Origin: a virus
Direction: 5' to 3' (one strand)
DNA: 47,004 nt
Virus record (IMG/VR): IMGVR_UViG_3300031539_000063
Span: 1 to 47,004 of that record
Shown: piece after piece, positions 6,736-24,254 of the stretch
Layout of the letters: each line of letters opens with the position of its first letter
Position numbering within the stretch: position 1 is the first letter of the stretch
Made by a program: the position numbers and the translations under genes
Notes under the pieces: generated by a model
Database searches by the model: none
Seen by the model: the letters and a program-made list of their open reading frames with translations, nothing else
Told to the model about the DNA's origin: nothing

Positions 6736-6812
6736 TGGGGTGACCGACCGGACTCGCACCGGCTTTCTCCGGGGTCACAACCCGGCGTTTCGTCTACTTC
6801 TACCTCGGCCAC
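6736..6812 (-). tRNA. tRNA-His(GTG), atypical elbow
   Basis: Loop TTGTGAC, discriminator C (expected for tRNA-His), CCA encoded. The T-loop is TGCGAGT instead of TTCRANT and the D-loop contains AGTAGACGAA with no GG pair. Confidence 0.82.
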
Positions 6813-7091: not shown

Positions 7092-7221
7092 GTGAAGATT
7101 CGGGCCACTTCCGATCGGGACATCACCCCGGTCGTCGGCCGCTTCGCCGGATGATGAACCCGACTCCACGACACCTCGCTGCGCTACCGCTCACGCGGCC
7201 CGCTTACGACGCTGGCCTTTG
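7092..7221 (-). other. 130-nt inter-tRNA gap
   Basis: No gene found. A D-arm-like stretch (GTGAGCGGTAGCGCAGCGAG) and a T-loop-like GGGTTCATCATCC occur here but no acceptor stem pairs them, so it may be a tRNA remnant. Confidence 0.3.
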
Positions 7222-9565: not shown

Positions 9566-9595
9566 TTGTGCGTCGTGCGTAATTACACACAACAG

Positions 9596-9680
9596 CGGAA
9601 GGTTGAGGACTCGAACCCCATGCCCTCGCGGGCACGCACTCCTTAGCAGGGAAGCCCGGAACCTTACCGGTCAACCTTCC
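9596..9680 (-). tRNA. tRNA-Ser(GCT)
   Basis: Type II; loop CTGCTAA, acceptor as in Ser(CGA), variable arm GTGCCCGCGAGGGCAT; no encoded CCA. Confidence 0.88.
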
Positions 9681-10412: not shown

Positions 10413-11012
10413 TCAGACCCGATACAGGAAATGCTCTTGGACGTACCGCTCGACCGTCGGCGGCACCGCATACCGCAACGTCTTGCCGTGCTTGATCCCA
10501 TTCCGCAACGACGACGACGACAGCCCAGTCACCTGCGACGGGAACACCTTGACCCGACCCCGGAACTCCGCCGGGATCTCCACCGGCTCCCCCTCACGCT
10601 CGCCCATCACGAACGTCGCCATGTCCAACACACGGTCGATATCGCGCCAACCATTCAACCCGTCGATGTTGTCCGACCCGCAGATGAAGAAGAACTCAGT
10701 GTCCACCTCACCGGCAACCAGATCAGTCAACGTGTCAACCGTGTACGTCGGCCCCGCCCGCTCAGCGTCGACATACGACACACGGAAGTTCGGGTTGTCC
10801 GCCACCGCCAACTCGGTCATCGCCAACCGATGCCGCACCGGAGTCGCGCCCCGCTTGTAGTCCGGCTCGCCCGTCACCACGAAGTAGACCGCCGACAAGC
10901 CCAGTGCGTAGCGGGCGTCCTCCGCGAGCAGCAGGTGTCCGAGATGCGGCGGATCGAACGTGCCGCCCAACAGTCCGACCTTCCGGCCCGTCGATAGGTG
11001 ATGTTGCTTCAT
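10413..11012 (-). CDS. nadD: Nicotinate-nucleotide adenylyltransferase
   Basis: 199 aa. The nucleotidyltransferase signature GGTFDPPHLGH lies at about residues 15-25, GSDNIDGLNGW follows in the middle, and the second ATP-binding motif GLSSSSLR (ISSTxxR type) lies near residue 165. NadD joins nicotinate mononucleotide and ATP to give deamido-NAD. Length is normal for bacterial NadD. ATG 11012 overlaps the nadE stop (ATGA), so it is the last, coupled gene of the NAD operon. Confidence 0.93.
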   Translation of the reverse strand: MKQHHLSTGRKVGLLGGTFDPPHLGHLLLAEDARYALGLSAVYFVVTGEPDYKRGATPVRHRLAMTELAVADNPNFRVSYVDAERAGPTYTVDTLTDLVAGEVDTEFFFICGSDNIDGLNGWRDIDRVLDMATFVMGEREGEPVEIPAEFRGRVKVFPSQVTGLSSSSLRNGIKHGKTLRYAVPPTVERYVQEHFLYRV

Positions 11013-12652
11013 GGCTTCCACCCGTTCGTGATGGGGAGCCGTCGTTCCCGGCCGAACGCTCGGGTCGTGATCTTCACGCCCGGTGCCGACTGACGGCGCT
11101 TGTATTCGTTCCGATCCACCAGCCCGACGACACGCCGAACCGTGTCCTCCGCTCCGACCCCGCTCTCGATGATCTCGTCGACCGGCGTGTGATCCTCGAT
11201 GTACGCCGCGAGGATCGCGTCGAGCATCGGGTACGGCGGGAGGCTGTCCGAGTCGACCTGATCGGGAGCGAGTTCCGCCGATGGGGGTTTGCTGATCGTC
11301 GCCCACGGGATGCGTTCCTCGTGCCGGTTGACAAACTCTGCCAACTCGTACACGACCGTCTTGGGGACATCCTTCAACACGGCGAACCCTCCGGCCATGT
11401 CCCCATAGAGGGTGCAGTAGCCGACGGCCATCTCCGACTTGTTTCCGGTCGCCAACACGATCCCGCCGTGCTTGTTCGTGACGGCCATCAGGATCAGGCC
11501 ACGGAGCCGGGCTTGCAGGTTCTCCTCCGCGACGTTCGGTTCGGTCCCGTCGAACAGCGGTTCGAGCGCGCCCACCGCAGCGGCGTACATCGGTTTGATC
11601 GACACGTCATCGCAGTCGATCTCCAACCCGGCGGCGAGAGCGAACGAGTCCAACACCGATCCGCCTGACGACCACGGACCCGGCATCGTGATGCCCCGCA
11701 CCCGGCGCGGTCCGAGAGCGTCCACCGCTATCGCCGCGGTCAACGCACTGTCGATCCCACCGGACAGGCCGATCGCTACCGACGGAAACCCGTTCTTGTC
11801 CACGTAGTCGCGCAACCCGATCGTGAGTGCCCGGTACGTTTCCTCGATCCGGCCGATGGGTCGGGGGAACACGTGCTGCACCGGATCGTCGGTGTCGACG
11901 AACGCGACGTACTCCTCGAACTGCGACATCTCGGCCAGAACGTGCCCACGGTTGTCGACATACAGTGACCCGCCGTCGAACACGATCTCGTCCTGCCCAC
12001 CCACGAGGTTCACGTAGGCGACCGCACAGCCGGTCCTCAGAGCCGTCTCTTGGACGAGAATGCGTCGGGCCTCCACTTTCCCGTGGTGGAACGGTGAAGC
12101 GTTCAGAACGACGAGCAGCGCCGCGCCTTGTTCCGCAAGGTGGTCGGCCAACTCGGGTCGCCACAAGTCCTCACAGATCAGCACACCGACCTTCGTGTCG
12201 GCCACGTCGAACAGATCACCGGACCATCCGTCGGGGGAGAACTTGCCGGGAGCGAAGTAGCGGGCCTCGTCGAACACCCCGTAGTTGGGGAGCAGTTGCT
12301 TCGCGTAGTGGTGCCGGGCCTTCCCATCGCGGACAGCGACCGCGGCGTTCAGGACCGTGCGCCCCTCGGCATCGTGCGTCATGGGAGCGCCCAACGTCGG
12401 TGCGGCGTAGCCGATCACGGTGGTCACTGTCTCGGCTTCGGCGGCGATCCGTTGCGCTGCCTGCATCGACTGGATGACGAACTCGTGGCGGAGCAGCAGA
12501 TCCTCCGGCGGGTAGCCGGTGACGGCCAACTCGGGGGTGATGAGCAGATCGCACCCGGCTAGTTCGGCGTCGGCCATCGTCGCGACGATCTTCGCCGTGT
12601 TGCCGTCGATGTCTCCGACAGTGAGGTTGAGTTGAGCAAGTCCGATCTTCAC
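11009..12652 (-). CDS. nadE: Glutamine-dependent NAD+ synthetase
   Basis: 547 aa, two domains. N-terminal nitrilase/glutaminase domain (1-250) with the triad Glu in ITPELAVTGYPPEDLL, Lys in HHYAKQLLPNYG and Cys in GVLICEDLW. C-terminal ATP-pyrophosphatase domain with P-loop GLSGGIDSAL (about 280). It converts deamido-NAD to NAD+ using glutamine. All catalytic residues are present and length is that of the short bacterial form. GTG start at 12652 overlaps the upstream stop (GTGA); the homologous sequence MKIGLAQLNLTVGDIDGN begins exactly there. Confidence 0.95.
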   Translation of the reverse strand: MKIGLAQLNLTVGDIDGNTAKIVATMADAELAGCDLLITPELAVTGYPPEDLLLRHEFVIQSMQAAQRIAAEAETVTTVIGYAAPTLGAPMTHDAEGRTVLNAAVAVRDGKARHHYAKQLLPNYGVFDEARYFAPGKFSPDGWSGDLFDVADTKVGVLICEDLWRPELADHLAEQGAALLVVLNASPFHHGKVEARRILVQETALRTGCAVAYVNLVGGQDEIVFDGGSLYVDNRGHVLAEMSQFEEYVAFVDTDDPVQHVFPRPIGRIEETYRALTIGLRDYVDKNGFPSVAIGLSGGIDSALTAAIAVDALGPRRVRGITMPGPWSSGGSVLDSFALAAGLEIDCDDVSIKPMYAAAVGALEPLFDGTEPNVAEENLQARLRGLILMAVTNKHGGIVLATGNKSEMAVGYCTLYGDMAGGFAVLKDVPKTVVYELAEFVNRHEERIPWATISKPPSAELAPDQVDSDSLPPYPMLDAILAAYIEDHTPVDEIIESGVGAEDTVRRVVGLVDRNEYKRRQSAPGVKITTRAFGRERRLPITNGWKP

Positions 12653-13365
12653 TGTGTCGTCTCTCGGTAGAAGGGCGGGTAGAGGTTCTCTGTCAGAGCG
12701 GGGAGCGCGTAGAGCCGTCCAAGCCCAAGCGATCCTCCGGCTTCTTCCAGCCGGAATGTCGACAGGACTTTGCGGCGGAAGTTCGCCGGTTCGATGTCGA
12801 CACCCCACACCGTTTCGTAGACCCGTCGGAGTTGACCGATCGTGAACTCGTACGGCAGGAACGCGGTCGCGTGGGTCGTGTATTCGAGTTTCGCCCGTGC
12901 CCGTTCGATGGCGTCGTCGATGATCGTGCCGTGGTCGAAGGCGAGCATGTCGCGGTCGATCATGTCGACCGGCCAGTACCTTGCCTCCGCCGCGTCCGAT
13001 CCGGCGATGGGGTTGCCCGGCTCGGGGAAGAACGCGACGTACGCGATCGACACGATGCGGAACCGTGGGTCGCGGGACGGTTTGCCGTAGGCCCCCAACT
13101 GTTCGATGTGGCCGGAGAACAACTCGGTGCCTGTCTCCTCCTGCAACTCGCGGAGAGCGGCGTCGTCGAGTCCCTCGTCGTGTTCGACGAACCCGCCGGG
13201 GATCGCCCACTTGCCCTTGTACGGGTGCCCTGCGCGTTTCACGAGCAGGACTGACAGGTTGCCGTCGATGATGGTGAGCAGTACGAGATCGACGGTGATG
13301 CCGGTCGGCGGGTAGGCCGTCGGGTCGTAGGTGGCGAGGAACTCGGCTTCGGTCTGGTCGCTCAT
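12649..13365 (-). CDS. Nudix protein with NrtR-type winged helix
   Basis: 238 aa. Nudix box GGFVEHDEGLDDAALRELQEE (Gx5Ex7REUxEE) is complete, so hydrolase activity on ADP-ribose or a related compound is plausible. The C-terminal region (about 165-225, FLPYEFTIGQLRRVYETVWG...NFRRKVLS) matches the winged-helix domain of NrtR-like repressors, which bind DNA and sense ADP-ribose or NAD intermediates. Located inside the NAD operon with ATGA overlaps on both sides. It may be regulator, ADP-ribose pyrophosphatase, or both; the intact Nudix box slightly favours a retained enzyme. Confidence 0.85.
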   Translation of the reverse strand: MSDQTEAEFLATYDPTAYPPTGITVDLVLLTIIDGNLSVLLVKRAGHPYKGKWAIPGGFVEHDEGLDDAALRELQEETGTELFSGHIEQLGAYGKPSRDPRFRIVSIAYVAFFPEPGNPIAGSDAAEARYWPVDMIDRDMLAFDHGTIIDDAIERARAKLEYTTHATAFLPYEFTIGQLRRVYETVWGVDIEPANFRRKVLSTFRLEEAGGSLGLGRLYALPALTENLYPPFYRETTQ

Positions 13366-14001: not shown

Positions 14002-15333
14002 CTAGTTCGGGGCCGCGCTGAGTGCGGGCCGTCCGGCTTCGATTCCTCGGTGCATCGGCCGAAGTTCAGCCATCGCTCCGTGGTGTGTCTGGCGGGCATG
14101 GACGAGCGTGCCGATATGGGGATTCACTCGCTTTCCGTCGCGGACCATCGGGTGCTGCAACGCACGGGCCAGCGGTGTCGACTGCGGATCGTCGTCGGTG
14201 AACCGAACCACGACCTGTTCCTCTACCGCGTGGCCTTCGGTTTCGAGAACGCGGAAGGCGTGCTTGCGGCCACCGACCGACGCTTTCCCGCTCGACCGTT
14301 TCTCGACAGGCCGGTAGGTGCCGTCGCCGTTTCCGATCGCGACCAACTTGTAGACCATCTCTGCGGTCGGGTGACCTGAGCCGGTGACCAACTTGGTGCC
14401 GACAAGGAACCCGTCGATGGGTGCGTCAGCCTTGACCAGTTTGTCGATCAGGTATTCGTCGAGATCGCCTGAGACGGTGATCTTCGTGACCGCTGCGTCG
14501 AGACTGTCGAGCAGCACACGGGCCTTCTTCGCTTCGGCGGCAAGATCGCCGGAGTCGATACGGATGTTCGCGGGGAACCTGCCGGTCACTTCACGACAGA
14601 CTTCGACGGCGTTCTTGATCCCCGTGGGGATGTCGTAGGTGTCGACGAGGAACGTGGTGTCGTGGCCGTACCGTTCGGCCTGCGCCCGGAACGCTGCACG
14701 CTCATCGGTGTGAAGCAGCGTCCATGCGTGGGCTGCGGTGCCGCCGGTCGGGACTCCGTAGAGGAACCCGGCTGCGAGGTTCGACGTGGCGTCGAATCCG
14801 CCGATGTAGGCGGCTCGTGCGCAAGCGGTAGCAGCGTCGGGGTCGGTACGTCGTCCCCCGCCTTCCAGCAGCGTCGCGAGTCCTGCCGCGGTTCGCATCC
14901 GGCTTGCGGCCGATGCGATTGCGCTGTCGTGGTTGAGGGTTGAGAGGATCAGCGTTTCGAGTACCACGCATTCTGCGAAGGTGCCTCGGACGGTGAAGAT
15001 CGGTGAGTAGGGGAAGTAGAGATCCCCTTCGGCGTAGCCGTCGATCTGTCCGGTGAACCGGTAGTCGCGGAGGTAGTCGAGTGTCTGTTCGCTGAGGAAG
15101 CCTCGTTCGCGGAGGTAGATCAGTTCGGCAAGGCTGCCGTCGGCGTCGCTGAATCGGAAGTTGTCGATGGCGTCGAGCAGTCTGCCGGTGCCCCCGACGA
15201 CACCGTAGCGGCGTCCTTCGGGGAGTCGTCTGGCGAACGCCTCGAACACGACGGGGGTGTCAGCGGTGCCTTCCGCGAGTGCGGCGTCGGCCATCGTGAG
15301 TTCGTAGTGGTCGGTTTGTAGGGCGGTGGTCAT
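14002..15333 (-). CDS. pncB: Nicotinate phosphoribosyltransferase
   Basis: 443 aa. The N-terminal LQTDHYELTMADA motif and the central GFDATSNLAAG, VDTYDIPTGIKNAVEV, RIDSGDLAAEAKKARVLLD and GTKLVTGSGHPTAEMVYKLV blocks are those of bacterial PncB. It makes nicotinate mononucleotide from nicotinate and PRPP. GAGGAG lies before ATG 15333. First gene of the NAD operon, downstream of a type B promoter and two palindromes. Confidence 0.95.
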   Translation of the reverse strand: MTTALQTDHYELTMADAALAEGTADTPVVFEAFARRLPEGRRYGVVGGTGRLLDAIDNFRFSDADGSLAELIYLRERGFLSEQTLDYLRDYRFTGQIDGYAEGDLYFPYSPIFTVRGTFAECVVLETLILSTLNHDSAIASAASRMRTAAGLATLLEGGGRRTDPDAATACARAAYIGGFDATSNLAAGFLYGVPTGGTAAHAWTLLHTDERAAFRAQAERYGHDTTFLVDTYDIPTGIKNAVEVCREVTGRFPANIRIDSGDLAAEAKKARVLLDSLDAAVTKITVSGDLDEYLIDKLVKADAPIDGFLVGTKLVTGSGHPTAEMVYKLVAIGNGDGTYRPVEKRSSGKASVGGRKHAFRVLETEGHAVEEQVVVRFTDDDPQSTPLARALQHPMVRDGKRVNPHIGTLVHARQTHHGAMAELRPMHRGIEAGRPALSAAPN

Positions 15334-15363
15334 GGGTGACTCCTCGATTCCAGTCTGTGTCAT

Positions 15364-15394
15364 CTTGACTCTATCTGTCAAGTCATTCTGACTT
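15364..15394 (-). promoter_or_regulatory. Two palindromes: candidate operator of the NAD operon
   Basis: AAGTCA-3-TGACTT (15380-15394) and CTTGAC-7-GTCAAG (15364-15382) overlap each other and lie just downstream of the -10 box, where a repressor would block transcription. The operon encodes an NrtR-like protein, the obvious candidate ligand-responsive binder (inference). Confidence 0.6.
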
Positions 15395-16162: not shown

Positions 16163-16234
16163 TGGTGCCCACGGGGAGAGTCGAACTCCCTCACCGAGTT
16201 TCGGAAACTCAGGTCCGCATCCCGCGGCGTAGGC
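16163..16234 (-). tRNA. tRNA-Arg(CCG)
   Basis: Loop TTCCGAA, acceptor GCCTACG/CGTGGGC, CCA encoded, one base from the next gene. Confidence 0.9.
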
Positions 16235-16261: not shown

Positions 16262-16283
16262 AGGGGTTTCAGTGAAGTATCAG

Positions 16284-16353
16284 CGCCCCGGTCGAGAGTC
16301 GAACTCAACCTCCGAGATTCGTAGTCTCAGGTCCCGATCCAGCGGGCCGGGGC
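16284..16353 (-). tRNA. tRNA-Arg(ACG)
   Basis: Loop CTACGAA; acceptor GCCCCGG/CCGGGGC; A34 would normally need deamination to inosine to read CGU/CGC/CGA. Confidence 0.9.
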
Positions 16354-17564: not shown

Positions 17565-17565
17565 G

Positions 17566-17633
17566 CAGGGCACCGGGGGATCGAACCCCGCAAGGTCGGA
17601 TTTGGAGTCCAACCCGCGCCCAGCGCGTGCCCT
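17566..17633 (-). tRNA. tRNA-Trp(CCA)
   Basis: Loop CTCCAAA on TTGGA/TCCGA, acceptor AGGGCAC/GTGCCCT, discriminator G; short D-arm; no encoded CCA. Confidence 0.88.
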
Positions 17634-19051: not shown

Positions 19052-19285
19052 TCAGACCGGTTCAGGCACCGTGATGTAGCGCGACCCCGCGTTCGTCCAA
19101 CAGGAGGCGGTCACCGAAGCCGTGGAAGAACCTTCACGGAACTCCCACTCGGCTTCGGTGAGCCAACTCTCCCCTTCGACGAACTTCGCAACCTGACCGA
19201 CAAGACGCCCCAGCCAGTAGGCGGGGTCGCGGCGGAACTTCGCCAGCGACACGCTCGTGGTGACTTCCTTGCGTCCTCTTGCCAT
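19052..19285 (-). CDS. Hypothetical 77-aa protein after tmRNA
   Basis: Begins MARGRKEVTTSVSLAKFRRD and ends YITVPEPV; basic N-terminus, Trp-rich middle. ATG lies 2 nt after the predicted mature 3' end of the tmRNA, so maturation of that RNA would release an almost leaderless message. No family recognised. Confidence 0.6.
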   Translation of the reverse strand: MARGRKEVTTSVSLAKFRRDPAYWLGRLVGQVAKFVEGESWLTEAEWEFREGSSTASVTASCWTNAGSRYITVPEPV

Positions 19286-19287
19286 CG

Positions 19288-19680
19288 TGGAGTAGGTGGG
19301 AATCGAACCCACGTCCGCTGAGTGGTTACGTCGACTGATCTACGACCGTTCCTCGTCTTTCCGAGGCGTCCGGGCCGACCGGTAAAGGTCCGCATCCACC
19401 AGCGAGTCTCTCCTCGCAGTCCCCCCGTCTTTCCGGGGATGCCATCCCGTCTCTCCGGGCTGTCCGACCTGTTTGGTTTGCAGGGTCAGGTCGTACCCCG
19501 CCAACTCGTCTTTATCAGACGAGAACGCCCTCGCGGGCATCGAACTCTGCCCATAGGGCATCGCTCTCGGTATCGGCGCTGAAATCGGCGTCGTTTGGTT
19601 TGTTGCCCTGTTTTACGAGTCTGAGCAACTCGGGTCGCAGTCGGCGCTTCCAGATCCCAACGTCGAAACCTGTCTACCCC
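19288..19680 (-). ncRNA. ssrA: Transfer-messenger RNA (tmRNA)
   Basis: 5' GGGGTAG pairs with 3' CTACTCC; T-arm GGTTCGATTCCCACC; 5' region starts GGGGTAGACAGGTTTCGACG as in bacterial tmRNA. Aligning with mycobacterial ssrA puts the resume codon at GCC in GACGCCGATTTC; the tag would begin ADFSADTESD, be 24 residues long and end EGVLV before TGA. It resembles the acidic, -LV-ending tag of mycobacteriophage Bxz1-type tmRNA. CCA is not encoded. Confidence 0.88.
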
Positions 19681-23221: not shown

Positions 23222-23295
23222 TGGTAGCGCCGGAGAGAATCGAACTCTCTACCACGCCTTATGAGGGCGCTGCCTCGCCAATCGGCCTCGGCGCA
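23222..23295 (-). tRNA. tRNA-Met(CAT), copy 1
   Basis: Loop CTCATAA; the first acceptor pair is T-T (mismatch), an initiator-like feature, but the anticodon stem GCGCC/GGCGT lacks three G-C pairs. Tile tRNA (lysidine) not excluded. CCA encoded. Confidence 0.82.
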
Positions 23296-23375: not shown

Positions 23376-23542
23376 TGGTCGACCCGGCAGGACTCGAACC
23401 TGCGGGCACGTCATGGTTCGGTGCAGGCACGAGGAATCGAACCTCGTCGTCTCCTGTGTGTCATACAGGTGCGTTCCCATCTTGCTCTGCCTGCTTGTAC
23501 CCGTCTCATGGTGCTGCGCTCTACCAACTGAGCCACGGGTCG
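23376..23542 (-). tRNA. tRNA interrupted in its anticodon region by tRNA-Val(GAC)
   Basis: 5' half: CGACCCG acceptor strand and D-arm GCTC-AGTTGGTA-GAGC. 3' half: T-arm GCAGG-TTCGAGT-CCTGC, CGGGTCG, A, encoded CCA. The acceptor strands pair perfectly over 7 bp. Between them, in the anticodon arm, lies a whole tRNA-Val. The break is flanked by direct repeats ACCATGA. The anticodon cannot be read with confidence. Either a split tRNA requiring joining, or a disrupted gene. Confidence 0.7.
23422..23494 (-). tRNA. tRNA-Val(GAC), nested
   Basis: Acceptor GCAGGCA/TGCCTGC, loop ATGACAC on CCTGT/ACAGG, T-loop TTCGATT, no complete CCA. It sits entirely inside another tRNA gene. Confidence 0.88.
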
Positions 23543-23546
23543 TGGT

Positions 23547-23586
23547 GATTACAGAACCCTTCCGGTACCGGAACAATTCTGTAATC
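23547..23586 (-). other. Long inter-tRNA stem-loop
   Basis: GATTACAGAA/TTCTGTAATC outer stem, 3x3 internal loop, TTCCGG-TA-CCGGAA inner stem, between tRNA-Ile and the interrupted tRNA. Confidence 0.75.
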
Positions 23587-24070: not shown

Positions 24071-24181
24071 ATGTTGGGGGAACGCAGCGTGCGTGCCACG
24101 CTCCCCCCGTGGGATTTTCAGACCGGCTTCTCCGCTACGCCTTTCGCACAGCGCGCGGGGGTCATCCGGTTCTCCCTACGT
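24071..24181 (-). other. 111-nt gap with stem-loop
   Basis: No gene. GGGGG...CCCCC with inner AGCGT/ACGCT (24075-24107) is a stable stem-loop after tRNA-Ala; a second ACCGG/CCGGT-closed segment lies beside it. Confidence 0.4.
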
Positions 24182-24254
24182 TGGTGGAGTACCCCGGAAT
24201 CGAACCGGGCGGGCCTTCTCTGCCAGAGATGGTCGCGACCCATGCGCGTACCCC
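24182..24254 (-). tRNA. tRNA-Ala(GGC)
   Basis: Loop CTGGCAG on CATCT/AGAAG (one mismatch), acceptor GGGGTAC/GTACTCC, CCA encoded. Confidence 0.82.

What the first reader, a model, noticed from the sequence alone, without database searches (positions are those of the whole stretch)
23376..23542. One tRNA gene nested inside another
The 5' and 3' halves of a tRNA (7-bp acceptor pairing, good D- and T-arms, encoded CCA) flank a complete tRNA-Val(GAC), with ACCATGA repeated at both break points in the anticodon region. Excision of tRNA-Val by normal end processing would leave two halves able to pair through the acceptor stem, as in split tRNAs. Alternatively it marks a recombination event that destroyed the outer gene.
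Basis: partly seen in the sequence, partly recalled or inferred. Interest (0 to 1): 0.78.

Follow-up and report, generated by a model that had tools for sequence, protein, structure and literature searches.

The report
tRNA gene broken by another tRNA
In a tRNA-rich phage, a complete valine tRNA gene sits inside the remains of another tRNA gene; a nearly identical sister virus has a different sequence at one break point, so the outer gene is most likely a recently destroyed pseudogene and not a tRNA pieced together from two halves.

Summary
On the minus strand, 23542-23376, two halves of one tRNA (7/7 Watson-Crick acceptor pairs, canonical D- and T-arms, encoded CCA) flank a complete tRNA-Val(GAC) (23494-23420). 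Chance alone would give such a pair about once in 100,000.

The split-tRNA reading is not supported. A sister contig (IMG/VR 3300031565_004970) matches the window over 16 kb with only 2 substitutions outside tRNA genes. It carries the same nest, but has 59 other bases where the window has 3, in the anticodon-side part of the outer 3' half. Neither version lets the halves form an anticodon stem beyond chance. No RNA ligase was detected in these 47 kb, no known intron family matches, and split tRNAs are reported only from archaea. ARAGORN's intron mode also "finds" the outer gene in 97-98% of shuffled controls, so it is no evidence.

Best explanation: a proline-type array tRNA was interrupted in its anticodon arm by a tRNA-Val segment flanked by a short direct repeat. 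The inner tRNA-Val is the working gene; the outer gene is a pseudogene, further eroded in the window. Still open: a distant relative has a 47-nt insert in a tRNA anticodon loop, so a small unknown phage tRNA intron is not excluded.

The parts
23518..23542 (-). outer tRNA 5' half: acceptor 5' strand CGACCCG, U8 G9, D-arm
   Evidence: sequence; 7/7 pairing with 23386-23380; weak truncated RF00005 match, 11.2 bits
23495..23517 (-). 5' break region GCAGC + ACCATGA + GACGGGTACAA: remains of the outer anticodon arm and spacer before tRNA-Val; first copy of the repeat at 23512-23506
   Evidence: sequence; repeat statistics
23420..23494 (-). inner complete tRNA-Val(GAC)
   Evidence: ARAGORN, Rfam 44.3 bits
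23404..23419 (-). 3' break region GA + ACCATGA + CGTGCCC; second repeat copy at 23417-23411. Window bases 23408-23406 replace 59 bases of the sister contig L014 (8661-8719)
   Evidence: alignment and BLAST of window against L014/L002
23376..23403 (-). outer tRNA 3' half: T-arm, acceptor 3' strand CGGGTCG, encoded ACCA
   Evidence: sequence; orphan T-half scans
23547..23586 (.). 40-nt near-perfect palindrome between tRNA-Ile and the outer gene (possible processing hairpin; not a T-run terminator)
   Evidence: the repeat finder I2, two 20-nt arms, 85% complementary

Best explanation
The outer gene is a dead tRNA gene. It was an ordinary member of the phage's tRNA array, most like tRNA-Pro. It was interrupted in its anticodon arm when a segment carrying a complete tRNA-Val(GAC) was inserted by recombination or template switching, leaving imperfect direct repeats beginning ACCATGA on both sides. 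The tRNA-Val is the functional product, released by the host's normal tRNA end processing (inferred). The flanking halves are discarded spacer RNA. The sister contig keeps a longer, probably earlier state; the window lineage has lost about 56 bases more, including everything that could have been the 3' strand of the outer anticodon stem. Shown: the nest, the pairing of the halves, the difference between sisters, the absence of an anticodon stem beyond chance. Inferred: the order of events, the proline identity, the lack of a joined product.
For: Both halves belong to one former gene (7/7 acceptor). The sister contig is identical over 16 kb apart from 2 substitutions outside tRNA genes, yet has a 59-versus-3-base replacement at the outer 3' half, as expected if that part is under no constraint. 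No anticodon stem beyond chance in either form (best 3 pairs in the window, 4 in the sister; 30% of shuffles reach 4 or more). In the sister the repeat extends to about 19 nt (ACCATGA-GACGGGTAC-AA / ACCATGACGA--GGTACGAA; p 0.0005-0.003 for the stretch chosen, 0.015-0.024 for the whole segment), suggesting it is nearer the original insertion. Closest array relative of the halves is tRNA-Pro(CGG) at 7221; most of the best annotated phage hits are tRNA-Pro. Four other proline tRNAs are still present in the array, so losing one is tolerable.
Against: Both halves are free of visible decay (acceptor, D- and T-stems all fully paired), which a very recent event explains but selection would explain too. 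Only two genomes with the nest are known, so constraint on the halves could not be measured. The state before insertion was not found: pattern scans for an uninterrupted copy gave only unrelated tRNAs or nothing. A distant relative (L008) has a tRNA with an anticodon-loop insert that still scores 51.8 bits, so interruption of anticodon loops may not be pure accident in this group.
Confidence: 0.76

Rival explanations
1. Functional interrupted tRNA: host RNase P and 3' processing cut out tRNA-Val, the two outer halves stay paired through the acceptor stem, are trimmed and ligated into a working tRNA.
For: Perfect acceptor, D- and T-arms with encoded CCA. In the sister contig an anticodon loop ATG^ACAC with a CACC/GGTG stem can be drawn (valine GAC).
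Against: ARAGORN in intron mode calls the outer gene in 486-491 of 500 shuffles, so that drawing is no evidence. The window has lost even that stem. No bulge-helix-bulge geometry in the fold, no group I match, no RtcB or PF09414 ligase in the 47 kb held. Split tRNAs are listed only in archaea (PMC4033280).
Confidence: 0.05
2. Anticodon-loop intron-like element: the outer tRNA carried a small insert of an unknown kind, as in the relative L008 (tRNA with a 47-nt insert), and tRNA-Val was later captured inside a partly duplicated insert.
For: L008:2637-2756 is a tRNA with a 47-nt anticodon-loop insert, Rfam 51.8 bits, E 3e-8. If cut at one point its loop reads C-U33-GGG-G37-A, canonical for tRNA-Pro(GGG). 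Both inserts begin ACCAT five bases after the D-stem (sequence).
Against: The two inserts are not convincingly alike (p 0.03-0.14 depending on scoring). No third member was found in the tRNA arrays of the other phage records surveyed. The L008 record is a metagenomic fragment.
Confidence: 0.1
3. The outer shell works as a structural scaffold or decoy: the transcript folds as a tRNA whose anticodon arm carries tRNA-Val, protecting the transcript or distracting anticodon nucleases.
For: In the window the minimum-energy fold closes the outer acceptor, D- and T-arms around the inner tRNA, with an 8-bp arm GCAC-CAUG/CAUG-AC-GUGC.
Against: Fold energy is unremarkable (z -1.5; sister z -0.6); flank pairing p about 0.08; the 8-bp arm is absent from the fold of the sister.
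Confidence: 0.05
4. Assembly artefact joining two tRNA genes wrongly.
For: tRNA arrays are repetitive, and the two contigs differ at this very place.
Against: The nest with the same 5' junction and both halves is in two contigs, and the second difference between the contigs (tRNA-Met) shows compensatory changes that errors would not give.
Confidence: 0.04

Closest known systems
tRNA pseudogenes in phage tRNA arrays (for example those counted in T4-like phages, PMC1524935)
   Same: Recognisable but broken tRNA gene inside an array of working ones
   Different: Here the break is caused by a complete second tRNA gene, and both halves are still perfect apart from the lost anticodon arm
Split tRNAs of archaea (Nanoarchaeum equitans, Caldivirga; PMC4033280)
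   Same: 5' and 3' halves separated in the anticodon region
   Different: No bulge-helix-bulge, no complementary leaders beyond the acceptor, halves in one array around another tRNA, bacterial virus
Group I introns in bacterial tRNA anticodon loops
   Same: Insert lies in the anticodon arm of a tRNA gene
   Different: Insert is about 100-145 nt, mostly a tRNA; no group I match in Rfam
tmRNA
   Same: tRNA-like ends closing around a large insert at the anticodon position
   Different: Canonical D-arm present; insert is a tRNA; the phage has a separate ordinary tmRNA at 19285-19680

Membership tests
tRNA pseudogene (insertionally disrupted) | two parts of one tRNA gene, separated by unrelated sequence | tested here: met
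   7/7 acceptor and D/T arms around a complete tRNA-Val
tRNA pseudogene (insertionally disrupted) | no complete cloverleaf with anticodon arm can be formed | tested here: met
   no anticodon stem beyond chance in window or sister; fusion at the repeat not called at default threshold
tRNA pseudogene (insertionally disrupted) | no functional product | not testable with these tools
   needs RNA from infected cells
split / trans-spliced tRNA | bulge-helix-bulge at the exon boundaries | tested here: not met
   fold of the region shows no paired 3-nt bulges around a 4-bp helix
split / trans-spliced tRNA | halves together give a full anticodon arm | tested here: not met
   at most 3 (window) or 4 (sister) of 5 pairs, within chance
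split / trans-spliced tRNA | splicing endonuclease / ligase available | tested here: inconclusive
   no PF01139 or PF09414 in the 47 kb fragment; the PF09511 search had no positive control; rest of genome and host unknown
group I intron in tRNA | match to group I covariance model | tested here: not met
   no intron family even at E up to 5
tRNA-Val (inner gene) | complete cloverleaf, anticodon GAC, U33 | tested here: met
   ARAGORN, RF00005 44.3 bits
tRNA-Pro (former identity of outer gene) | C1-G72 and A73, similarity to proline tRNAs | tested here: inconclusive
   closest array gene is Pro-CGG, annotated phage hits mostly tRNA-Pro; anticodon lost

The most novel reading that the evidence does not exclude
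Phages of this group carry tRNA genes with small, non-group-I inserts in the anticodon loop that are removed in the infected cell, possibly as protection against anticodon nucleases; in the window's outer gene such an insert has captured a whole tRNA-Val, giving two tRNAs from one nested locus.
Probability: 0.05. Interest if true: 0.85.

Novelty: new variant of a known kind. Interest (0 to 1): 0.36.

Why it matters
It shows a tRNA array changing on a short time scale: between two almost identical phages nearly all differences in 16 kb fall in two tRNA genes about 130 bases apart. It also gives a clean caution that a tRNA finder run in intron mode calls a spliced tRNA between almost any two matching halves. 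If the rival intron reading were true, bacterial viruses would have an unknown kind of tRNA maturation.

Tried and rejected
ARAGORN intron calls of the outer gene (valine GAC in the sister, glycine in the window): rejected because 97-98% of shuffles give a call. Fusing the halves at the ACCATGA repeat: not called at default threshold. Long arm in the window fold as a designed scaffold: p about 0.08. Homology of the sister's 59-nt segment with the L008 insert: looked striking by eye (ACCAT..., CAGACGG...GTAGCG-AAT) but p 0.03-0.14. Uninterrupted outer gene in viral and bacterial contigs: only unrelated tRNAs, nothing with a free acceptor. Known phages: no nucleotide match to the region. Known RNA families: none of note besides tRNA. 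ACCATGA as a formal target-site duplication: possible, not provable.

Full report
What is there. The window is a 47,004-base IMG/VR virus contig, about 64% G+C, from an unclassified tailed phage whose portal and Mre11-like proteins are distantly (about 30%) like those of actinobacterial phages. It carries at least 37 tRNA genes and a tmRNA. The acceptor strands CGACCCG and CGGGTCG pair 7 of 7.

Is it more than chance? A scan of both strands for orphan T-halves with a fully complementary acceptor and a D-arm 90-500 nt upstream finds this one alone in the window. From the background of D-arm look-alikes and the probability of a 7/7 match the chance expectation is about 1e-5. The repeat ACCATGA at the two break points is real but by itself only marginal (p 0.06-0.08).

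The decisive comparison. A second contig, IMGVR_UViG_3300031565_004970, covers 16 kb of the same region. Outside tRNA genes it differs from the window by two substitutions. It contains the same nest with the same 5' junction, but where the window has three bases (23408-23406) it has 59 (L014 8661-8719). These bases lie where the 3' strand of the outer anticodon arm should be. A part whose sequence must be kept for a joined tRNA would not be expected to be replaced while everything around it stays identical.

Can the halves make a tRNA? With the D-stem and T-stem fixed, the best anticodon stem has 3 pairs in the window and 4 in the sister, and about 30% of shuffled inserts reach 4 or more. ARAGORN in intron mode names the sister's outer gene tRNA-Val(GAC) with a 145-nt intron, but it also reports a spliced outer tRNA in 486 to 491 of 500 shuffles, so this is an artefact of the search mode. 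Rfam finds no intron family in either version. RtcB and PF09414 RNA ligases were not found in the 47 kb; the record is a fragment, so this is weak. A published survey lists split tRNAs only in archaea and group I introns as the bacterial tRNA introns (PMC4033280).

How it probably arose. In the sister the repeat extends beyond ACCATGA to about 19 imperfect bases (p 0.0005-0.003 for the stretch chosen, 0.015-0.024 over the whole segment). This suggests that the sister is nearer to the original event and that the window has since lost about 56 bases. The halves are most like tRNA-Pro(CGG) of the same array, and most of the best annotated phage hits of a joined version are tRNA-Pro; C1-G72 with A73 fits proline (established knowledge). 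The outer gene was therefore probably a proline tRNA that lost its anticodon arm when tRNA-Val was inserted. Four other proline tRNAs remain in the window.

A control that raised a question. To learn how unusual this is, tRNA arrays of other phages were scanned. No other convincing nest was found. One distant relative, L008 (methyltransferase 47%, portal 29% identical), has a tRNA with a 47-nt insert in the anticodon loop that scores 51.8 bits, E 3e-8. Its loop would read C-U-GGG-G-A after removal, canonical for proline. By eye its insert resembles the sister's 59-base segment, but the similarity is not convincing (p 0.03-0.14). A T4-like phage has an enlarged, degenerate leucine-like tRNA (L058 1330-1459). 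Interrupted or swollen tRNA genes thus occur sporadically in phage arrays. Most are presumably decaying genes, but a small unknown intron is not excluded, and the L008 gene is the better place to test it.

Verdict. The recombination-pseudogene reading is favoured at about 0.76, a rejoined split tRNA at about 0.05. Interest is moderate: an unusual and instructive nest, but most likely not a new mechanism.

Noticed in passing
23222-23295 (-), against L002 9236-9309: tRNA-Met differs from the nearly identical sister contig by 7 bases in 25, including compensatory flips of two anticodon-stem pairs (sister GGG/CCC, initiator-like, with a 1-72 mismatch; window GCC/GGC). With the nest this makes two tRNA hot spots in an otherwise almost identical 16 kb.
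   Followed up: partly
L008 2637-2756 (+): tRNA gene with a 47-nt insert in the anticodon loop, Rfam 51.8 bits; spliced it would read as tRNA-Pro(GGG).
   Followed up: partly
6739-6812 (-): tRNA found by Rfam and missed by ARAGORN; loop TTGTGAC suggests tRNA-His, so this fragment alone would encode tRNAs for all 20 amino acids.
   Followed up: partly
9593-9680 and 24179-24254 (-): Two more tRNA-like genes missed by ARAGORN: Ser(GCT)-like and an Ala(GGC)-like one with G3-U70 and a very small D-arm.
   Followed up: partly
16163-16234, 16283-16353, 17565-17633 (-): Arg, Arg and Trp tRNAs with shrunken D-arms (D-loops of 4-7 nt in the ARAGORN models).
   Followed up: no
11009-13207 and 14002-15378 (-): NAD synthetase and nicotinate phosphoribosyltransferase genes close together, a possible NAD-restoring pathway against NAD-depleting defences.
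   Followed up: no
L058 1330-1459 (-) (Enterobacter phage EcL8g): Enlarged, degenerate leucine-like tRNA with perfect acceptor pairing and about 40-55 extra bases, not called by ARAGORN.
   Followed up: no
23547-23586: 40-nt near-perfect palindrome inside the tRNA array, between tRNA-Ile and the outer gene.
   Followed up: no
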